Assembly (NCBI GenBank): GCA_030431975.1
Contig: JAUIHP010000016.1
Coordinates: forward strand, 62,001 to 126,000
Origin: a bacterium
GTDB taxonomy: Bacteria > Eisenbacteria > RBG-16-71-46 > CAIMUX01
DNA: 64,000 nt
Reading direction: 5' to 3'
The notes beneath the pieces were generated by a model. It searched no databases. It was not told where the DNA came from and saw only the letters and a list, made by a program, of their open reading frames with translations. This document shows positions 42,739-59,584 of this stretch, piece by piece. Numbering within the stretch: the first letter of the stretch is position 1; every line of letters starts with the position of its first letter. A program made the position numbers and the translations under genes.

Positions 42739-43590
42739 ATGACTCGCAAAGTGGAACGGACAACGGCTCACACACTCCTCTGGACCGTTTGCGTCCTGGG
42801 ACTGATCGTCATGGGCTGTCAGTCCAAAAAGACCGAGTCGAAAGAGGGCGAAGGCAATCAAGCCACGGCAGAGTCCGCGTCCAACGGCTCATCCGCGGCC
42901 TCCGGTGACTCGAAGGAATCGGGGGACGACGCCGAGAGTCGCGCCAAGGCTGCTGCGATCGCCGACCGAGTCATCGAGGGACTGGGTGGAGAGAACGCCT
43001 GGCACGAGACCCGGTACCTTTCCTGGGTTTTCTTCGGCGGCCGTGAGTACTGGTGGGACAAGAAGACCGACGATGTTCGGATCGAAACAAACGACGCCGT
43101 CGTTCTCCTGAATCTACGAAGCGGAGAGGGACGCGCCAAGAAGGCCGGCGAGGAATTGAAGGATCCCACTCATCTCCGCAGTTTCCTGAACCTGGCGAAA
43201 GGTTGGTGGGAGAACGACTACTACTGGATGTTCCTGCCCTTCGTACTTCGGGATGACGGCGTCAACCTGACCTACAAAGGTGAAGGAACGACGAACAGCG
43301 ACGTTCCCTGCGACATCATCACAGTCACGTTTGACGAAGGCTACCGCGAGCGTTCCAAGGCCAAGTATGACGTGTACGTCTCCAAGGAAGACGCCACCGT
43401 CCTGCAGTGGTCGCACTATCCACGTCGGGAACTGGAGAAGCCACAGTTCACCCTGCCCTGGGGTGGTTGGCAGCAGTTCGGCAAGATCCGCCTCGCTACG
43501 GAGCATGGACAAGGCAAGGATTGGAAGATCGCGGCGCCGCAGACCCTGCCGGAGTCGGTGTTTCAGAGCTTCGATCCGGTGGTTTCCTAG
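42739..43590 (+). CDS. Lipoprotein, LolA-like fold suspected; host gene of the island
   Basis: 283 aa. The signal ends VMGCQSKK, a lipobox. A Ser/Glu/Gly linker leads to a domain starting ADRVIEGLGGENAWHETRYLSWVFFGGREYWWDKKTDDVRI, which resembles the beta-sheet half-barrel of LolA/LppX-like proteins (DUF6503-type). Ends GKDWKIAAPQTLPES and then the final residues FQSFDPVVS. It is operonic with the efflux adaptor. Its last 24 codons and about 70 bp of 3' flank recur 6 kb downstream, showing that the island at 43.5-49.65 kb entered at the 3' end while leaving this copy intact. Confidence 0.82.
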   Translation: MTRKVERTTAHTLLWTVCVLGLIVMGCQSKKTESKEGEGNQATAESASNGSSAASGDSKESGDDAESRAKAAAIADRVIEGLGGENAWHETRYLSWVFFGGREYWWDKKTDDVRIETNDAVVLLNLRSGEGRAKKAGEELKDPTHLRSFLNLAKGWWENDYYWMFLPFVLRDDGVNLTYKGEGTTNSDVPCDIITVTFDEGYRERSKAKYDVYVSKEDATVLQWSHYPRRELEKPQFTLPWGGWQQFGKIRLATEHGQGKDWKIAAPQTLPESVFQSFDPVVS

Positions 43591-43662
43591 ACCTAGACCT
43601 AGAGCTCCTGATGAAGCTTCGCGCCTGATCCGCCTGCGCTCCAAACCGGCGGGAAGTGTGGG
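43519..43662 (+). repeat. Left copy of the 144-bp direct repeat (possible attL)
   Basis: Identical to 49511-49654 over 84 consecutive bases (43547-43630 versus 49537-49620) and about 92 percent overall by hand alignment. It covers the last 24 codons, the stop and about 70 bp downstream, including the short tandem TAGACC units around the stop. Confidence 0.9.
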
Positions 43663-43833
43663 TGTTCAGTGGACCGTAACCGAGGAATCGGTAGTGCCTG
43701 AGCGGCTCTTCTCGCCCTCCGCTTCGTTGCTTCTCCTCCGAGTACCGCCTCAGGTATTCGTCGTCGTAGCGCCTTGCGGTGAACGAGAATCCCTCGCTCG
43801 AATGAAACTTTCAGCTGAGAAAGTGACATACCA

Positions 43834-43945
43834 ATGATGAAAGACACGATTCGAGGGGGCTGCTTTGTCTTGCGATTTGGGGAAGCGTACCTGCTGCTGA
43901 GCCGAAGACATGGCACGTCCTTTTGGACGGTACCGGAGATGCACC
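43834..43945 (+). pseudogene. Possible truncated Nudix hydrolase start
   Basis: The frame from ATG 43834 reads IRGGCFVLRFGEAYLLLSRR and then HGTSFWTVP, which looks like the N-terminal strands of a Nudix domain. The Nudix box that should follow (GGxxExxE) is missing; the next bases run into the reverse-transcriptase fragment in another frame. A likely gene remnant cut by the intron or IS event. Confidence 0.35.
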
Positions 43946-43997
43946 TTTCTTCGAGGCAGCGGTCGTGGGGCGTGGGTCGACTCCGTCTGCGGTCCCC

Positions 43998-44240
43998 CGA
44001 GAGTTCACCTTCCTCGGGTACGACTTCAAAGAGCGCACGCTGATCGATCGAAACGGAGTTCTGTTCCGAAAGGTTGCTCCGGGTGCCTCAAAGTGTGTTC
44101 CAGTCGCGGCTCGTCAAAAAAAGTACCGACTCGGGCAACGTGCTGCCGAGCGGAAGCTGGCTCGTGTTCGCCAAGCCCAACCGTCGTTGTTCGCCCACGG
44201 GACTCTCCTTGGATCGAATGCGCACCCAAGAGCCGTATGA
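43998..44240 (+). pseudogene. Group II intron reverse-transcriptase remnant
   Basis: The frame through 43998-44093 reads PREFTFLGYDFKERTLI then DRNGVLFRKVAPGASK. FTFLGYxF with this spacing is characteristic of the RT domain 7/thumb region of group II intron maturases. The catalytic YADD part and the C-terminal maturase and endonuclease domains are missing; after GASK the frame becomes unrelated. It lies directly before an intact domain V, confirming an intron fragment. The flanking frame is open to 44240 but not meaningful. Confidence 0.7.
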
Positions 44241-44314
44241 GTGGAGACGCTCACTTACGGTTCTGTGAGCGACCCCGGGGGGAGGTTCCCCGGGTCGACT
44301 CTTCGGAAGCGAGA
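44230..44314 (+). ncRNA. Group II intron domain V and VI fragment
   Basis: Bases 44230-44264 form a perfect domain V: GAGCCGTAT, then GAGT, a GGAGAC turn, GCTC, and TTACGGTTC, with the catalytic AGC triad and the two-base bulge in place. The folding and length match domain V of Ll.LtrB-type introns. A GC-rich hairpin (44271-44314 region, CGACCCCGG / CCGGGTCG) follows where domain VI should be. The 5' intron domains were not found, so this is a 3' remnant. Confidence 0.85.
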
Positions 44315-44337
44315 AGGGCGGGCGGGTTGGAGCGAGT

Positions 44338-44487
44338 CTTTTCTCCATCGTCGCCGCCTGCAAGGCGCTGGATATCCACCCCGAGCGCTATCTCAAGGAC
44401 GTTCTCGAACGCGTGAGCAGCACACCACAGTCGGAGATCCGGAAGCCCACGCCGTGGGCGTGGGCCGAGGAGAGCGCCGCGAACTAA
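44338..44487 (+). pseudogene. IS66 transposase (TnpC) C-terminal remnant
   Basis: In frame 44338-44487: FSIVAACKALDIHPERYLKD, then VLERVSSTPQSEIRKPTPWA and WAEESAAN followed by TAA. The segment C-K-x-x-x-I-x-P-E-R-Y-L-x-D-V-L and a closing PWxWA are the characteristic end of IS66-family TnpC transposases. The upstream part, catalytic DDE core and TnpA/B genes are absent. It is joined to the intron fragment at about 44315-44337. Confidence 0.85.
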
Positions 44488-44759
44488 CCGGACGAAGAAG
44501 CGGTGCCGGTCAGACATGTGACCACCGAACGCGCCGTCCAGGAGCTTCTCGTCGATCTTCTACTTCTCGCCTCCGTCCGAGGAGTCCATTGTATGGCTCA
44601 AACACGAAACTTCTGACAGTCTCGGGGGCAGCGACGGACTGGGTTAGCGCAATACCAACGACGAGAGAAACACCGTTCGACTTTTCCTAGACCCCCTGAG
44701 AGTATCAACTCGTCCTTTAGCCTGGGGGGACAGTTGTTGACTTGAAGTCAGGGAGTCTT
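44488..44759. other. Non-coding stretch before the defence operon
   Basis: 272 bp between the IS66 remnant and hamA. No coding frame is supported. It should hold the operon promoter; a Shine-Dalgarno-like AGGGAG at 44750-44755 precedes the chosen GTG. Nothing else was recognised. Confidence 0.45.
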
Positions 44760-45602
44760 GTGCCCACGAAGAAGCGTACAACTCGCACCCGCCTCCAAGA
44801 GCCAGCGGGGCTGTCGCGACATACCTACGACCTCTATTGGCTAGATGTTGAGGACGGCGACCAGTCTGACCGACCATTCGCAGAGAAGACAGCACATGAG
44901 AGCGAGGGTAGTCGAGCGGCCGTCGAGCCGTTCCTAGTTGAGGCCATTCAGGATCATCACACGTCGCGCCAGAGAGTGGCCCAAGTGCTCGATGAGCTTG
45001 GCCATGCGGAGGCTGCGGAGTTTTTCGCACAGGAACTGCCGAAGGCTGATCGAACCCGGAAGGGCAACTTTGGAGAGGTCGTCGCCTCAGAGCACCTCAT
45101 TCAGCGGTACGGCTACTCGATGCCGGTATTCAAACTCCGGTATCGCGACAGCGCACTTCCGATGCGCGGAGAGGACATCGTCGCGTTTGAGGTGAATGAC
45201 ACAGGCAAGATTGTCCGTGTCATCATCGGTGAATCAAAAGCGGCCAAGCGCTACCGAAGCGAGACCGTGCGAGAGGCCCACGAGCGACTGAGGGGGGCCT
45301 ATAGACCCCGCCCAAAGACACTCGCGATGCTTTCCAACATACTCTATGACAAGGGCGACGATGCACTGGCGGCGCAAATCGACAGGATCTCAATCTCACT
45401 ACCACGTCGGGCCTTCCCTTGTGCGCATTGGATCTTTGTTATTTACGAGAATCAGCCGCAGGACCCTTTTGCGGTCTTGGCGGAGAATGGAGAGGCGATC
45501 ACTGATCTATGTTGCGTTAGCGTCACCCTGCCCGAGATGACCGATCTAGTCGATACGCTGTTTGACGCGGGGCCTGTTTTACGTCCCGACGAGGACGAGT
45601 AG
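44760..45602 (+). CDS. hamA: Hachiman HamA-like nuclease (DUF1837)
   Basis: 280 aa. GTG 44760 is preferred because AGGGAG lies five bases upstream; TTG 44742 is an in-frame alternative. A DUF1837-type core is visible: KGNFGEVVASEHLIQRYG (E106), PVFKLRYRDS, MRGEDIVAF (D139) and VIIGESKAAKRY (E158, K160). E, D, ExK in this order is the PD-(D/E)xK nuclease pattern described for HamA. In the Hachiman system HamA is held inactive by the HamB helicase and degrades DNA when HamB senses damaged or phage DNA. The stop is immediately followed by the GTG of the helicase gene. Family assignment is by pattern, not by search. Confidence 0.78.
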   Translation: MPTKKRTTRTRLQEPAGLSRHTYDLYWLDVEDGDQSDRPFAEKTAHESEGSRAAVEPFLVEAIQDHHTSRQRVAQVLDELGHAEAAEFFAQELPKADRTRKGNFGEVVASEHLIQRYGYSMPVFKLRYRDSALPMRGEDIVAFEVNDTGKIVRVIIGESKAAKRYRSETVREAHERLRGAYRPRPKTLAMLSNILYDKGDDALAAQIDRISISLPRRAFPCAHWIFVIYENQPQDPFAVLAENGEAITDLCCVSVTLPEMTDLVDTLFDAGPVLRPDEDE

Positions 45603-48600
45603 GTGCCGCGTGACCTGGCCGAAACGGCTCTTGCTCTTCAGGAACTCCTAGAAGATGGAGCACTGCGGAATCTACAAGCCCAAGCACACGCGCGTACCAT
45701 GCTCAACCAGTTGGGTACATCCGCTGACGACTGGCACCAATTCACGGAGGAACTCGACGAACGGCTGTTGTACGGAGCGCACGTGTATCTCGTGCGAGGA
45801 ATGGAACTGATTGACATCGACTCGCATGCCGCACTGGGAAGCAGTCTTCTTTTCCGTGGAGCAGAGACGCTTGAGTTCATCACGGATTCAGCGCGGGGGC
45901 CTATTTCGCGGTTCGAAGAGCGTCTCAATGCTGCCCTTGCTTATCACGTATCAGGCCACCACGCTCGCTCATACGTGATAGCAGATCGGCTGGCAGAGGA
46001 AGAGCACACTGGCAGGGGTCCAGATGGTCTCGCGACATCGCTCTTGGCACTGCTTCGTCGAGATCTTCGGAGTCTCTCCACATCCTGCCTCAAGACTCTT
46101 GGAAGTCAGACATCGCAGGACCAGGGTGTGAGTAAGGCACTACGAGAAGGCGCGCTGGATGACGACGACGCCATCGGGAACTTGGGCCGTCGTAGCTTAA
46201 GCGAGGCACTCCTATCTTACCTGGAGTACGCCAAAAGAGGCCAGGCTGAGCTTCTTGTCGGCGCTCGAGCACAGTGTCGTGTCGTGTCCCGCCTAGGGCA
46301 GGAAGCTGGTCACGTCGATCTCTGGTGGCTTGGACTAGCAGTTGAAAGGCTTCTGCGTGACCTGGGTAACTCGAGCCTTTGGAGTGGTCTGAGAGATCTC
46401 TGTCCTACGTCTCCGTATGGGGGCGCTATTGACCGGTATATCGAATCCAGTTTACGGGCCGAAACATCAATCGTGACTCTGTGGCCCTCCCAACGCAAGG
46501 CGCTTGGAATGATCAAGACTCCGGGGGCACCGAGCTTCTGCATCCGAATGCCAACCAGCGCAGGTAAGACGAAGATCGCGGAGTTCTGTATTCTTCGAAC
46601 GATGCTAGAGGCTGTGGTCGAGGACGATGCGAGATGCCTATACATCGCTCCGTTTCGGTCCCTGGCTGTGGAGGTGGAGTCAACTCTTAGCAAGGGCTTA
46701 CGCCCTCTTGGGATCCGAGTTTCGGAGATCTACGGCGGCTTCGACTTGACAGTGGCTGACGAACGTCTGATCAGAGAGACCCAGGTGATGGTTGCTACTC
46801 CGGAGAAGATTGACGCCGCCGTCAGGCTCGTGCCGGACCTCTTGGACTCAGTTCGACTGGTGATAATTGATGAAGGACACATTGCCGGGTCTCGCTCTGA
46901 AAGGGGGATACGGGCAGAATTCCTAATCAATCGACTGCTTTGGCGACTTGGGCGTGACAACTGCCGCCATGTGTTCATCTCAGCCGTACTGCCGAACGCA
47001 GATGAGTTCGCGTCTTGGATAGGTGGTTCCGCAGATAGAATCGTCGAATCCGACTGGCGGCCGTCGCGCTTGGTTCTTGGCGAGTGCGAATGGAGTAGAA
47101 CCCGAGGTGACGTCCGGCTCTCGTTCACGCACGAGGGGTCTCAACGGCTGGAGACGGATGTCCTCATCCAACCGTTCGTCAGAGTGCGTGGTGTGCGAGG
47201 GGTTCCCGGGGCCGGTAGGCGACGGAACGCGTTCCCCCACGATACGCCCGAGGCGTTTGCGGCATGTGTCCTGAGGTTCGCTCAGTACGGCACAACCCTC
47301 GCGTTTGTTCCACAAGCACGACAGGTAGATAGCAACGCGCGCGTCCTCGTAAAGGCGAGTCACCTCATGAAGGTACTATCCGAGGCGGACGGTGAGACTT
47401 GGAAGCTGCCAGCTCCGGACGGCACGACGCGATTGATGAGAGAGGCCATTGATGCGATGGGTGAAGAACTTGGGGAAGGCTCTGAACCCGAGTGGTTTCT
47501 GCGACATGGTATCGCCATACACCGAGGCAACTTGCCAGCAGGAGTAAGAATCGCAGTAGAGCGGCTGATTCGGGCTGGGGAGATCCGGATCATTGTCGCA
47601 ACAACTACGCTCGCTCAAGGCGTGAATCTGCCAATCCGCACTGTGCTGGTTCGGGGACTTCAGCAAGGACAGGATAGTGTCGTCGACGCGATGACGTTCT
47701 GGAACATCGCCGGGCGGGCGGGTCGCGCGCTTTGCGAGAACGAGGGCCAAGTCCTCTTCTTCAACGACATCGAGCGCGACCGGTTGGTCGTGCGCAGGCA
47801 ACGACAGGCAGCTGCCGCGATCGTCGACAGATCCGCCGTAGAACAAGTAGTCGGTCTCCTGTATCGGATCTTGAAGCTGCTTGTGCATCGATGGAGGATC
47901 GATGCACCTGATTTGGACCTACCTGGTTTAGCCCTAAGGCTGGCCGAGAATGACTTCGAGTGGGTTGAGAGGTCACGGCGTCCAGGGCTGAAGGAGTTTG
48001 TCGCGCTGATCGATCAGCACTTGCTGGCTGTTGCCGTTGAAGGCGGGTTTGGTCCTGCTGATCTGGATTTGCTCCAGGAGGTGCTTCGCGAATCGCTGCT
48101 GTACGCTCAGTTGGGCGCCCGTCCAGTTGAACGGCTTGATGAGACGGCCGCTCGGGACATCTTAGCAGCGAGGCTGCGGTGGGTCTTCGCGCGAGTGCCA
48201 CATCCGACAAGGCGGGAGCAGTTCTATCGCATGGGTATGTCGCTCGGGGACTGCGAGACTATCGAAGCAGCAACTGACGAGCTGCTTACCCTTGTCGAAC
48301 AAGCGCATGAGTGGCAGGAACTCACCTTAGCACAGCGACTAGAGCTGCTGATGTCATTCGCCGTGATCGCAAGTCGGGTCAAGGCAACGAGTGAGGCTGT
48401 CCGAACGATGCCTCCCGATGCGCTGGACATCGTGAGAGCATGGCTTCAAGGTAAGCGATGCGTACAGATCGTCGCAGACGGCCTAGGGGAAGAGCTGGAG
48501 CACGACGCGGGGCAGTTGGGCCGGTTTCTTGAAGAGTACTGCGTTTACGGACTGGCATGGGCCGTCAGTGGCCTGATCAGCTTCGCTAAGGAGGAGCTGC

Positions 48601-49175
48601 AAGCGGAGGGAGCCGAGGGGCCGGTCGTCCTAGATCACCTGCCAGCAATGTTTAAAATAGGTGTGAGCGACCCGTTGGCTGCCGTGTTTGCCCCATATAT
48701 CCAGATGGATCGGGCGCTGGCGATGACGGTTGCCAAGGTGTGTCCATATGGCCTCACCGAGATTCCCAGAGCTATTGCCTGGCTTCATGCAGCTCCTGCT
48801 GCGGAACTAACAGCGAAGGGGCTATCCGCGCCCGAGGTGGATGTTCTTCGGAGGAAGCAGCGTCAACTGCCGGACTTTGAACCGTTCGAGTTCGAAGATG
48901 GGGCCATGCGATGGAGCGTGAAGGTCAGATCGGCTCCAATCAGCATTGGAGCGAATGACCGGCTTGTTGTCGTCCCACGTCCGGACCAAAGCCCCGCGCA
49001 CTATGATTTGGTCACCCTTTCTGGCAAGCGACTTGGCAACTTCCGCCGGTCCACAGGAGAGCTTCCGCCCTGGTGGAATGACCCGCTAAGCACGGATGTA
49101 CGAGTGGAGAACGTTGACCTGCTGGGCGACGGCGGTGTGCGCGTGGCACTCAATGCTCGCGAGCTCGCAATCTGA
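45603..49175 (+). CDS. hamB: Hachiman HamB-like SF2 helicase
   Basis: 1190 aa, GTG start with zero spacing after hamA. An N-terminal helical region (about 1-295) precedes a Ski2-like DEAD/DEAH core: LWPSQRKALGMI (Q-like), Walker A MPTSAGKT (316-323), DEGH (423-426), SAVLPN (motif III), YGTTLAFVPQARQVD (motif IV), TTLAQGVNLPIRTVLVRG (motif V) and GRAGRA (704-709). About 480 residues of mainly helical sequence follow and end without a known domain. The motif set, size and partnership with a DUF1837 protein match HamB. The codon use is unlike the flanking host genes. Confidence 0.85.
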   Translation: MPRDLAETALALQELLEDGALRNLQAQAHARTMLNQLGTSADDWHQFTEELDERLLYGAHVYLVRGMELIDIDSHAALGSSLLFRGAETLEFITDSARGPISRFEERLNAALAYHVSGHHARSYVIADRLAEEEHTGRGPDGLATSLLALLRRDLRSLSTSCLKTLGSQTSQDQGVSKALREGALDDDDAIGNLGRRSLSEALLSYLEYAKRGQAELLVGARAQCRVVSRLGQEAGHVDLWWLGLAVERLLRDLGNSSLWSGLRDLCPTSPYGGAIDRYIESSLRAETSIVTLWPSQRKALGMIKTPGAPSFCIRMPTSAGKTKIAEFCILRTMLEAVVEDDARCLYIAPFRSLAVEVESTLSKGLRPLGIRVSEIYGGFDLTVADERLIRETQVMVATPEKIDAAVRLVPDLLDSVRLVIIDEGHIAGSRSERGIRAEFLINRLLWRLGRDNCRHVFISAVLPNADEFASWIGGSADRIVESDWRPSRLVLGECEWSRTRGDVRLSFTHEGSQRLETDVLIQPFVRVRGVRGVPGAGRRRNAFPHDTPEAFAACVLRFAQYGTTLAFVPQARQVDSNARVLVKASHLMKVLSEADGETWKLPAPDGTTRLMREAIDAMGEELGEGSEPEWFLRHGIAIHRGNLPAGVRIAVERLIRAGEIRIIVATTTLAQGVNLPIRTVLVRGLQQGQDSVVDAMTFWNIAGRAGRALCENEGQVLFFNDIERDRLVVRRQRQAAAAIVDRSAVEQVVGLLYRILKLLVHRWRIDAPDLDLPGLALRLAENDFEWVERSRRPGLKEFVALIDQHLLAVAVEGGFGPADLDLLQEVLRESLLYAQLGARPVERLDETAARDILAARLRWVFARVPHPTRREQFYRMGMSLGDCETIEAATDELLTLVEQAHEWQELTLAQRLELLMSFAVIASRVKATSEAVRTMPPDALDIVRAWLQGKRCVQIVADGLGEELEHDAGQLGRFLEEYCVYGLAWAVSGLISFAKEELQAEGAEGPVVLDHLPAMFKIGVSDPLAAVFAPYIQMDRALAMTVAKVCPYGLTEIPRAIAWLHAAPAAELTAKGLSAPEVDVLRRKQRQLPDFEPFEFEDGAMRWSVKVRSAPISIGANDRLVVVPRPDQSPAHYDLVTLSGKRLGNFRRSTGELPPWWNDPLSTDVRVENVDLLGDGGVRVALNARELAI

Positions 49176-49510
49176 TTGTCACTTTTGATCTCCCCACTTG
49201 GGTTGGTGGGGCTCGTTCGGTAAGTAGGAAGTCATCCAGAGGGAAGTGTTGCCAGCCTAGCCCCTCTTTGTTGCCAACCTGACAGTCACCGATCGCAGAG
49301 CGGTGCCCTGTCCGATCAAGTGCCGACCGCTACAGCTGATACCTCCCTCGGGCGCAATAGGTCGCGGACCTCTGCCAACTAGGTCAGGGTCGTTCACTAT
49401 CGACAAATCTGATGAACTGCTACCCATAGGTACGCGTTCGGTGACCCCATCTTGAGCGTCGGACCGGATTGACGAGAATGGGGTTCCACCCTCAAGGAGG
49501 CGCCATGACT
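49176..49510. other. Tail of the island: hairpin and leader of a lost gene
   Basis: Directly after hamB a CCCCAC/GTGGGG hairpin (49192-49197/49206-49211) may end the transcript. From about 49440 there is a stem ACCCCAT / ATGGGGT, then CTCAAGGAGGCGCC and an ATG at 49504 with a good ribosome site. The ATG runs straight into the displaced gene end and stops after nine codons (MTDWKIAVP). It looks like the leader of a lost gene, possibly a transposase, joined to the right repeat. Confidence 0.45.
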
Positions 49511-49654
49511 GACTGGAAGATCGCGGTGCCGTAGACTGCCGGAGTCGGTGTTTCAGAGCTTCGATCCGGTGGTTTCCTAGACCTAGACCTAGAGCTCCTG
49601 ATGAAGCTTCGCGCCTGATCGGCCTGCGCTCCAACCCGGCACGAAGTGTGAGTG
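49511..49654 (+). repeat. Right copy of the direct repeat (possible attR); decayed gene end
   Basis: Matches 43519-43662 but with a C-to-T change that creates a TAG in the old frame and loss of two C residues (GACTGCC instead of GACCCTGCC). It no longer encodes the protein tail. It is the displaced copy, free to decay. Confidence 0.88.
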
Positions 49655-49660
49655 AGTTGG

Positions 49661-50983
49661 TTAGTTGACCCCAAGAAGGACGAAACGAGCCTTCAGGTCG
49701 AGAGCCTTTCCCTGAATGCGCACGTAGTAGACGCCCTCGACCAGATCCGCTGACGAGGGTAAGGACGCGATTGTTGGGCCTGCCTCCAAGCTCAGCCAGG
49801 ACTCACCTTCCAAGGCCCCGGCGACGTCGTACAACCGAACGCAATACGATCCAGCGTACGGCACCTGAAACGACAGGCGCGGCGCGGACCGGGCTGGGTT
49901 AGGGAAGACCCTCAGGAAGACATCGTCTCCGAGAACTTCCATCGGCGACGACGAGGACTGGCAGGTCAAGAATGCTCCAGCAGACTCACATGGTAGGCCG
50001 AGATGGAGGAGTGGATCTGCACACGGCGAATCAGGGCTCAAGTAAAAGTCGTTGTTGGAAGGATCGCAGAACATCGGATCCACGGAGTAGTTGTTGGTTG
50101 TGCTGCATCCCCCGCACAACAAGCCTCCGTCCTCGTTGTCCCAGAAGTCCGAACACCGGACGTTTCCGCCATCTGCAAGCACCGCCCCAGCGCCGCCGAT
50201 TGTTCCGGCAACGATACAGCGTTCGATCTCTGCGTAACCGGCCAGAAGATTGATCGCTCCACCCATTCCCACAACTTCATTTCCCCAGAAAGTGCAACGA
50301 CTCAGAACCGGGTGAGAACCGAAGTCGCAACACTCATGGTAGGAGCCGAGGCCGCCGAACTCCCCTCGATTGCCAACGAAAACACTTCCTGTGACCTGCG
50401 AGGGTCCGGACAGTGCGACCGCGCCGTACCCCGTCGACGTGTTGTCAACAAAGAAGCAGTTCTCTACATCGCCGGAGAAGCTGCTAAAGACGAGCGGCGC
50501 ACCGTCATCCGTTACGGAGATTGTGTTTCCGATAAAGTCGCAGTCGACCACGAGCGACCCTGGTCCGGGCCACACGATTCCCCCGAAACTTTTGTCAGCG
50601 ATAGACTCGAAGACACAGCCCTCCATCACGAAAGTGCCGCCAATAATAACGGTGTCATCCCCGGTGAACCGAAGGTTCTCGATTCGGTGCCCGTCCGCCA
50701 CCCGATACCAAAGTCTAAGGTCGACAATTGTCGTAGAACCGGGAGTCGCACCCAAGCCCACAATCGATAGATCTGACACCCACACTTGTGTGTGCGCTTC
50801 GGAACCCTCGGCATAGAGACCCGGTTGGATGGCGACGACATCGCCCGATTGTGCAGCCAGCACGGCCTCACGGACCGAACTGAAGTCTGCGTCGGCGCCG
50901 GATCCTACTAGAATCTGCTCGGCACTGCAGGTTGCCGCAAGCATCAACTGAAAAGCGAATAGCGCGATGAGGTAGATCTTCAT
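49661..50983 (-). CDS. Secreted beta-helix protein with sorting tail
   Basis: 440 aa from ATG 50983; signal peptide LIALFAFQLMLAATCSAEQ. Residues about 20-340 are a right-handed parallel beta-helix of the polyvalent NosD/CASH type: ILVGSGADADFSSVREAVLAA, DVVAIQPGLYAEG, IENLRFTGDD, VENCFFVDNTS, VTGSVFVGNRGEFGG and RCTFWGNEVVGMGGAIN. Cys residues are frequent in turns. The C-terminus has NPARSAPRLSFQV, DVAGALEG and LVEGVYYVRIQG, a type IX-like sorting domain. It lies immediately beyond the island's right repeat and is convergent with the island. Confidence 0.85.
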   Translation of the reverse strand: MKIYLIALFAFQLMLAATCSAEQILVGSGADADFSSVREAVLAAQSGDVVAIQPGLYAEGSEAHTQVWVSDLSIVGLGATPGSTTIVDLRLWYRVADGHRIENLRFTGDDTVIIGGTFVMEGCVFESIADKSFGGIVWPGPGSLVVDCDFIGNTISVTDDGAPLVFSSFSGDVENCFFVDNTSTGYGAVALSGPSQVTGSVFVGNRGEFGGLGSYHECCDFGSHPVLSRCTFWGNEVVGMGGAINLLAGYAEIERCIVAGTIGGAGAVLADGGNVRCSDFWDNEDGGLLCGGCSTTNNYSVDPMFCDPSNNDFYLSPDSPCADPLLHLGLPCESAGAFLTCQSSSSPMEVLGDDVFLRVFPNPARSAPRLSFQVPYAGSYCVRLYDVAGALEGESWLSLEAGPTIASLPSSADLVEGVYYVRIQGKALDLKARFVLLGVN

Positions 50984-51081
50984 GGGGTTCCCGATCGTAG
51001 TAGGGGCCACAGCGGTCGAAGCACTCAGTAGCTAAAGTAACACAGTGACAGCCTTGTCTTCACGCCGAACGGCGAGGTTGT

Positions 51082-58288: not shown

Positions 58289-59584
58289 ATGCGCCACCCA
58301 AACAAGAAGCGAATTGCCGTCATTACATCGTCGAGGGCGGACTTCGGGCACCTCTTCTGGCCACTGAAAGAGCTGGAGGCGCGGCCTGAAGTCGACCTTC
58401 TTCTCATCGCGATGGGGCCACATCTGTCTTCGGAGTTCGGGCACACCGTCGACGCGATCGAGGAGGCGGGCTTCGTCGTCGACTACAAGCTGGAGTGCCT
58501 GCTGAGTTCGGACTCCGATGTCGGTATGGCGAAGACGATCGGTATTGCCACGCAAAGCCTTGCCGATGTGCTGGGCCGCGAACGGCCCGACCTGCTTCTC
58601 GTCATCGCCGATCGATACGAAATGCTCGCTCCGGCTTCGGTGGCCTTGGCCTTACGGATTCCGATCGTTCACATCGAGGGAGGAGAGGCTTCGGAAGGCG
58701 CCATTGACCACGCCGTGCGCAACGCGCTGACGATGATGAGTCACATCCATCTGACGCCGACCGAGCTGTCCCGGCGCCGCGTCATTGCCATGGGCGAGGA
58801 GTCCTGGAGAGTCCACTGCACCGGCGCGCCGAGCCTCGACCACTTGAACCGCTCCGCGCTCTTGGACCGAGCGTCGCTCGAAACGGAGTTGGGGCACGAG
58901 ATCTTCGATGGCACGATCCTGGTTGGCTATCATCCAGTCACGTTGGAGAAAGAGACGGTACAAGGCGTCGGCGAACTGCTGGCCGCCTTGGAACAGGTCC
59001 GGCGCCCGCTCATCTTTTGCTTTCCGAACGCGGATGCCGGAAGCCGTCGGATCATCAAAGAAGTCGAGGGGTTCCGCGCACGGAGATGGCCGCGCGATGT
59101 CGATCGTGAAGTCGGTCGCGAAGTCGGTCACGAAGTCGGTCACGAAGTTGATCACAAGGTCGGTCACGAAGTCGGCCGTGAAGTCGGTCGTCGTGAAGCT
59201 CCGTCGATTCGGATCCACGTCAACCTTCCGCCCATTCCGTACTGGAGTCTGCTGCGGCACGTCGACATGTTGGTCGGGAACTCGAGTAGCGGAATCATGG
59301 AGAGTCCCTCTGTCGGGATTCCCGCGATCAACATCGGAGACCGACAGAAAGGCCGGGAACGGGCAGAGAACATCATCGATGTCCAGCCGGAGGCAGGAGC
59401 TATCGTTCAGGCGATCGAGCGCGCTTCAACCGAAGCGTTTCGGTCACGTGCTTCCAACGCGGTGAATCCCTACGGCGACGGGAATGCGTCGGTAGAGATC
59501 GCAAGGATTCTCGCGGAGCTGCCAATCGATGCCACTTTCAACGCCACTCTTCTAAGGAAGCCGGCTCTTCAGCTTCCCGACTGA
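58289..59584 (+). CDS. UDP-GlcNAc 2-epimerase, NeuC-like (hydrolysing type)
   Basis: 431 aa. Converts UDP-GlcNAc to ManNAc (or an epimerised sugar) for sialic-acid-like or bacillosamine-derived sugars. Key elements: ITSSRADFGHLFWPL, DRYEMLAPA, HIEGGEASEGAIDHAVRNALT, LVGYHPVTLE and VGNSSSGIMESPSVGIPAINIGDRQKGR. All family-defining residues seem present. Between GSRRIIKEVEGF and IRIHVNL a seven-unit 12-bp tandem repeat adds about 28 residues (units such as GREV, GHEV and DHKV). This falls in a surface loop that is short in homologues. No sialic acid genes are nearby. Confidence 0.92.
   Translation: MRHPNKKRIAVITSSRADFGHLFWPLKELEARPEVDLLLIAMGPHLSSEFGHTVDAIEEAGFVVDYKLECLLSSDSDVGMAKTIGIATQSLADVLGRERPDLLLVIADRYEMLAPASVALALRIPIVHIEGGEASEGAIDHAVRNALTMMSHIHLTPTELSRRRVIAMGEESWRVHCTGAPSLDHLNRSALLDRASLETELGHEIFDGTILVGYHPVTLEKETVQGVGELLAALEQVRRPLIFCFPNADAGSRRIIKEVEGFRARRWPRDVDREVGREVGHEVGHEVDHKVGHEVGREVGRREAPSIRIHVNLPPIPYWSLLRHVDMLVGNSSSGIMESPSVGIPAINIGDRQKGRERAENIIDVQPEAGAIVQAIERASTEAFRSRASNAVNPYGDGNASVEIARILAELPIDATFNATLLRKPALQLPD
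59102..59185 (+). repeat. 12-bp coding minisatellite, seven units, in the epimerase
   Basis: Seven contiguous 12-bp units related to GGTCACGAAGTC, all in frame, with substitutions mostly at the first codons. They encode DREV, GREV, GHEV, GHEV, DHKV, GHEV and GREV. Copy number should be variable. Confidence 0.92.

What the first reader, a model, noticed from the sequence alone, without database searches (positions are those of the whole stretch)
43519..49654. Island flanked by a duplicated gene end, with no integrase
The last 24 codons and 70 bp of 3' flank of a host lipoprotein gene recur 6 kb away in the same orientation, 84 bases identical. The left copy is intact, the right has decayed. 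This is the footprint of an element that enters a protein gene's 3' end and restores it. Such sites in protein genes are less usual than in tRNA genes, and no recombinase remains.
Basis: partly seen in the sequence, partly recalled or inferred. Interest (0 to 1): 0.75.

Follow-up and report, generated by a model that had tools for sequence, protein, structure and literature searches.

The report
Phage-defence island behind duplicated gene end
A two-gene anti-phage defence system (Hachiman) sits in a bacterial chromosome between two copies of the tail end of a host gene, most likely the scar of an acquired DNA segment that entered at that spot; this kind of insertion is already known, and how this one entered is not proven.

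Summary
The repeat is real. 146 bp (43519-43664), covering the last 24 codons of a host lipoprotein gene plus 74 bp of 3' flank, recurs at 49511-49654 in the same orientation: 93% identical, 85 columns without a difference. The left copy completes the gene; the right copy has a stop and a frameshift and ends 6 bp before the stop of a convergent beta-helix gene. Between the copies lies an apparently intact Hachiman operon (HamA 44742-45602, HamB 45603-49175) with catalytic motifs, plus debris: a truncated hairpin repeat of a genome-wide family, group II intron domains V-VI and the last codons of an IS66 transposase. No recombinase is present. Hachiman is nearly absent elsewhere in the phylum, so acquisition is well supported. 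The proposed empty site could not be tested: the nearest relative held (another genus) has one gene end, followed by a different gene. Two details weaken the simple story of an integrase site with one decayed copy: differences sit only at the edges of the repeat (P about 0.003 against even decay), and no recombinase-type inverted repeat stands out. A mobile island at a gene's 3' end is the best reading (about 0.5). Such islands are known; interest is modest.

The parts
42739..43590 (+). host lipoprotein gene (283 aa), intact, ends in the left repeat copy
   Evidence: ORF; orthologue in G002 at 46-48% identity with conserved left-hand neighbours; no Pfam family
43519..43664 (+). left copy of the direct repeat: last 24 codons including the stop plus 74 bp of 3' flank
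43668..43799 (+). hairpin (MITE-like) repeat, one terminal inverted repeat intact, about 32 bp of the other end missing; member of a family of about two dozen mostly partial copies in this genome
   Evidence: full 164-bp copy at G000:C10:388621-388784
43923..44240 (+). possible C-terminal remnant of a group II intron reverse transcriptase (inferred from position and motif only)
   Evidence: ORF; no Pfam match; overlaps and is followed by intron domain V
44228..44304 (+). group II intron domains V-VI (3' end of an intron)
   Evidence: Rfam RF00029, 48.7 bits, E 3e-7; plasmid ltrA/maturase loci match here
44305..44487 (+). last codons of an IS66-family transposase (5' part missing)
   Evidence: Pfam PF13817, E 7.5e-9; tblastn to annotated IS66 transposases
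44742..45602 (+). HamA, Hachiman effector nuclease
   Evidence: PADLOC HamA E 2.5e-39; Pfam PF08878; PDB 8vx9_A E 5e-17 with D...E-x-K aligned
45603..49175 (+). HamB, Hachiman Ski2-like sensor helicase (1190 aa), directly after the hamA stop
   Evidence: PADLOC HamB E 6.6e-166; PDB 8vx9_B E 3.4e-76 with DEGH conserved
49176..49510 (.). non-coding DNA at the right end of the island, single copy in the genome
49511..49654 (+). right copy of the direct repeat; stop and 2-bp deletion in the coding part
49661..51010 (-). convergent beta-helix protein gene whose stop lies 6 bp beyond the right copy
   Evidence: Pfam PF13229

Best explanation
A DNA segment carrying the Hachiman anti-phage operon was acquired and integrated at the 3' end of the lipoprotein gene, in the short space between it and the convergent beta-helix gene. 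The incoming DNA carried a slightly different copy of that gene end. Recombination within the shared stretch rejoined the host gene to a complete 3' end (left copy) and left the other copy at the far side (right copy). An integrase acting on the gene end as attachment site is the most likely agent; its gene has since been lost, or acted from elsewhere, and the left part of the island has filled with insertion-sequence, intron and hairpin-repeat debris. Shown: the repeat, the intact gene, the cargo identity, the debris, the rarity of the cargo in the phylum. Inferred: integration as one event, the site-specific mechanism, loss of the integrase. The cargo is expected to work as Hachiman does: HamB senses damaged DNA and releases the HamA nuclease, which ends the infected cell (PMC12278908).
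For: Direct repeat of a gene end flanking the insert, gene kept whole. Cargo is a complete Hachiman pair with GC3 of 0.61-0.65 against 0.66-0.75 for nine neighbouring genes (the beta-helix gene at 0.66 is close to hamA). HamB relatives were found in only 2 of 47 genomes of the phylum, and the other one is a 31% partial match. The repeat covers nearly exactly gene end plus intergenic space to the convergent neighbour. Differences flank an 85-column core, as expected when two diverged segments recombine in the middle. Island DNA is otherwise almost entirely single copy in the genome. Precedent: phage 21 replaces 165 bp of the 3' end of icd (PMC4129442); many genomic islands sit in protein genes and reconstitute them (PMC12884075).
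Against: No integrase or recognisable remnant in the island. The whole genome has only three Pfam Phage_integrase matches, none near this locus. No recombinase-type inverted repeat in the core beyond shuffles (55 of 60 shuffles do as well). No empty site and no second occupant could be examined. No copy of the core in viral contigs. A 146-bp imperfect repeat is longer than most attachment cores.
Confidence: 0.5

Rival explanations
1. Integration by ordinary homologous recombination: a circle or fragment from a relative that carried Hachiman and this gene end entered by a single crossover in the 146-bp stretch, with no dedicated recombinase.
For: No recombinase, no inverted-repeat core; long, imperfect homology with diverged edges and an identical middle is what a single crossover between diverged segments leaves.
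Against: The stretch is short for RecA-type recombination between diverged DNA, and the repeat stops close to the end of the intergenic space. Needs a donor that already had the gene end next to Hachiman.
Confidence: 0.22
2. A short local duplication of the gene end came first; later insertions (hairpin repeat, IS66 with its intron, Hachiman) piled up between the two copies.
For: The insert is visibly composite. The same genome holds another separated duplication beside a half-copy of the same hairpin repeat: an nqrM-like gene at G000:C5, 221 bp, 93% identical, 2.9 kb apart.
Against: Does not explain why the duplication covers gene end plus intergenic space so exactly, or why the differences are confined to the edges.
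Confidence: 0.2
3. Assembly artefact: chromosome and a separate Hachiman-bearing molecule, or two strains, were joined through the identical stretch in a draft assembly.
For: Draft assembly of 59 contigs; an identical stretch of 84-85 bases could tangle a short-read graph.
Against: The copies differ at both edges and sit in unique sequence inside a 163-kb contig; the island contains a hairpin repeat of the host's own family.
Confidence: 0.08

Closest known systems
Hachiman (HamAB) anti-phage defence system, E. coli ECOR31 structure 8VX9
   Same: hamA then hamB; HamA D-E-x-K and HamB DEGH conserved; full length
   Different: Distant in sequence; host is a Candidatus Eisenbacteria lineage; flanked by a gene-end repeat
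Phage 21 in the 3' end of icd
   Same: Long segment shared with a protein gene's 3' end supplies an alternative gene ending (165 bp, PMC4129442)
   Different: The phage is known as a mobile element with its own integration function; here neither an integrase nor an empty site is seen
Genomic islands that integrate in protein-coding genes and restore them (TIGER/Islander type)
   Same: Foreign cargo, direct repeat from a gene end, gene kept whole
   Different: No integrase; boundaries not confirmed by an uninterrupted relative

Membership tests
Hachiman | HamA (DUF1837 nuclease) with the D-E-x-K motif | tested here: met
Hachiman | Adjacent Ski2-like helicase HamB with DEGH and helicase motifs | tested here: met
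   starts directly after the hamA stop codon
Hachiman | Protects against phage | not testable with these tools
   needs an assay
Integrase-driven genomic island | Direct repeat at both ends derived from the target gene, gene restored | tested here: met
Integrase-driven genomic island | Recombinase gene at one end | tested here: not met
   no such ORF between the repeats; three Phage_integrase matches in the genome, none near this locus. Serine recombinases were not searched by profile
Integrase-driven genomic island | Core with imperfect inverted arms for a tyrosine recombinase | tested here: not met
   best candidate no better than in shuffled sequence, (weak test)
Integrase-driven genomic island | Uninterrupted site in a close relative | tested here: inconclusive
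   nearest relative with the gene is of another genus; one gene end, different next gene
IS or composite transposon insertion | Terminal inverted repeats and a short target duplication at both ends | tested here: not met
   no inverted repeat pair of 20 bp or more in 42-51 kb; hairpin-repeat end present on the left only

The most novel reading that the evidence does not exclude
The hairpin repeat family of this genome takes part in making gene-end duplications. The two long separated direct repeats found in about 1.07 Mb both lie within about 40 bp of a half-copy of this repeat, with its intact end facing the gene copy judged original. That would point to an integrase-free, hairpin-associated route that duplicates a gene's end or a whole small gene and places new DNA between the copies.
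Probability: 0.06. Interest if true: 0.6.

Novelty: new member of a known kind. Interest (0 to 1): 0.3.

Why it matters
It adds a Hachiman system in Candidatus Eisenbacteria, a phylum where HamB relatives are nearly absent in the genomes held, and a probable new insertion site at a protein gene's 3' end. If close relatives show other defence cargo at the same site, it would be a small defence hotspot. As it stands it illustrates known processes.

Tried and rejected
Looking for an empty site: 59 genomes by kinship, one scan of genome contigs and G002 in detail gave only other-genus relatives. Looking for the attachment core elsewhere: own genome and viral contigs, none. HamB in viral contigs, none; plasmids, only distant helicases, the best about 30% identical. 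The flank of the only other HamB-like gene in the phylum (G025) shows no comparable direct repeat. Two of the three integrase loci in the genome (C35, C18) show only coding-type tandem repeats, no flanking duplications. Synteny with G001 by the histidine kinase reaches the kinase and regulator only and says nothing about the site. The nqrM-like duplication was considered as a second case of the same process: its two copies are both intact and differ mainly at synonymous positions (13 of 16 changed codons), so it looks like an ordinary gene duplication with an insert, and it is not counted as support.

Full report
Observation. The finding is real. A segment of 146 bp at 43519-43664 recurs at 49511-49654 in the same orientation. 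It consists of the last 24 codons (stop included) of an ORF of 283 aa, 42739-43590, and 74 bp beyond it. Eight substitutions and one 2-bp deletion separate the copies, and 85 consecutive columns show no difference. It is the only separated long direct repeat of the window; in about 1.07 Mb of the same genome examined only one other of 100 bp or more was found.

The copies. The left copy completes the gene. The right copy, read in the gene's frame, has CAG changed to TAG and a 2-bp deletion, and upstream of it no similarity to the gene continues. It ends 6 bp before the stop codon of a convergent beta-helix gene (49661-51010, minus strand). The likely ancestral arrangement is therefore two convergent genes about 80 bp apart, with the island in that space (inference). 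The differences are not spread evenly as in simple decay of one copy: they lie in the first 28 and the last 34 columns; random placement gives such a long clean run in 0.3% of trials. A recombination between two slightly different segments, or later homogenisation, explains this better.

The cargo. The insert carries an operon of two genes, hamA (44742-45602) and hamB (45603-49175). PADLOC profiles give E 2.5e-39 and 6.6e-166; Pfam gives HamA and DEAD/helicase domains. The best PDB matches are HamA and HamB of the E. coli ECOR31 Hachiman complex, with the nuclease motif D...E-x-K and the helicase motif DEGH aligned. In that system HamB senses DNA damage and releases the HamA nuclease; mutation of either active site removes defence (PMC12278908). 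By sequence this copy looks intact; function was not tested.

The debris. Between the left repeat and hamA lie, in order: a hairpin repeat (43668-43799) with one end intact and the other missing, member of a family with about two dozen mostly partial copies in this genome; domains V and VI of a group II intron (44228-44304, Rfam); and the last codons of an IS66-family transposase (44305-44487, Pfam). The intron match ends at the base before the matching IS66 reading frame, so the pair is probably the 3' part of an IS66 copy that was itself interrupted by an intron. Apart from the hairpin repeat and a 43-bp stretch after the IS66 remnant, the left and right non-coding parts of the island are single copy in the genome.

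Foreign origin. GC3 of hamA and hamB is 0.65 and 0.61, against 0.66-0.75 for nine neighbouring genes; the beta-helix gene, at 0.66, is close to hamA, so this is weak evidence alone. HamB relatives at E <= 1e-20 occur in 2 of 47 genomes of the phylum, the other a 31% partial match.

Test of the interpretation. The decisive test, an empty site, could not be made. Of 59 genomes ranked by kinship the nearest with the gene is of another genus (G002; 48% identical). The same contig is the record JAGQHR010000049.1, Candidatus Eisenbacteria bacterium HKST-UBA01 (same length and match position). There the lipoprotein gene has the same left-hand neighbours, is followed about 50 bp later by a probable carbonic anhydrase gene (my reading of the sequence), and synteny with the window resumes at 60.5 kb. 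No second gene end was matched there. This shows that the space behind the gene is variable across genera, not how this island entered. No integrase lies in the island; the genome has three Phage_integrase matches, on other contigs. A search for an imperfect inverted repeat within the repeat found nothing beyond shuffled sequence. The core occurs nowhere else in the genome or in viral contigs.

Judgement. An acquired Hachiman island at the 3' end of a protein gene is the best reading. That it used a site-specific recombinase is likely but unproven; homologous exchange and a prior local duplication remain open. Such islands are not rare enough to surprise: phage 21 replaces 165 bp of the end of icd (PMC4129442), and many genomic islands sit in protein genes and rebuild them (PMC12884075). 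The finding is a new member of a known kind.

A loose end. The other separated repeat found in this genome is a duplication of a small gene whose product resembles NqrM (my identification), at G000:C5:95131-95351 and 98079-98299, with a beta-helix-like gene between the copies and a half-copy of the same hairpin repeat 36-40 bp from the copy that lies beside nqrF- and apbE-like genes (my identification). Both copies are intact and differ mostly at synonymous sites. The sample was biased towards hairpin loci, and two cases are too few, so I record the association as a lead only.

Noticed in passing
L090 5132-5352 and 8080-8300 (G000:C5:95131-95351 and 98079-98299): A second separated direct repeat in the same genome: a small nqrM-like gene duplicated (221 bp, 93%), both copies intact, with a beta-helix-like gene and a half-copy of the hairpin repeat between them.
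   Followed up: partly
G000:C10:388621-388784 (L064 8622-8785); window 43668-43799: A palindromic hairpin repeat family of up to 164 bp with CTAG at both flanks of the full copy, about two dozen mostly partial copies, several with only one end.
   Followed up: partly
window 44228-44487: A group II intron 3' end that stops exactly where the end of an IS66 transposase reading frame begins, suggesting an intron that once sat inside an IS66 element.
   Followed up: partly
window 59095-59202: Seven imperfect 12-bp tandem units inside an ORF (58289-59584) that resembles a UDP-sugar epimerase (my reading).
   Followed up: no
L108 17580-18130 (G000:C35): A tandem array of 19-bp units in the neighbourhood of one of the genome's three Phage_integrase matches.
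   Followed up: no
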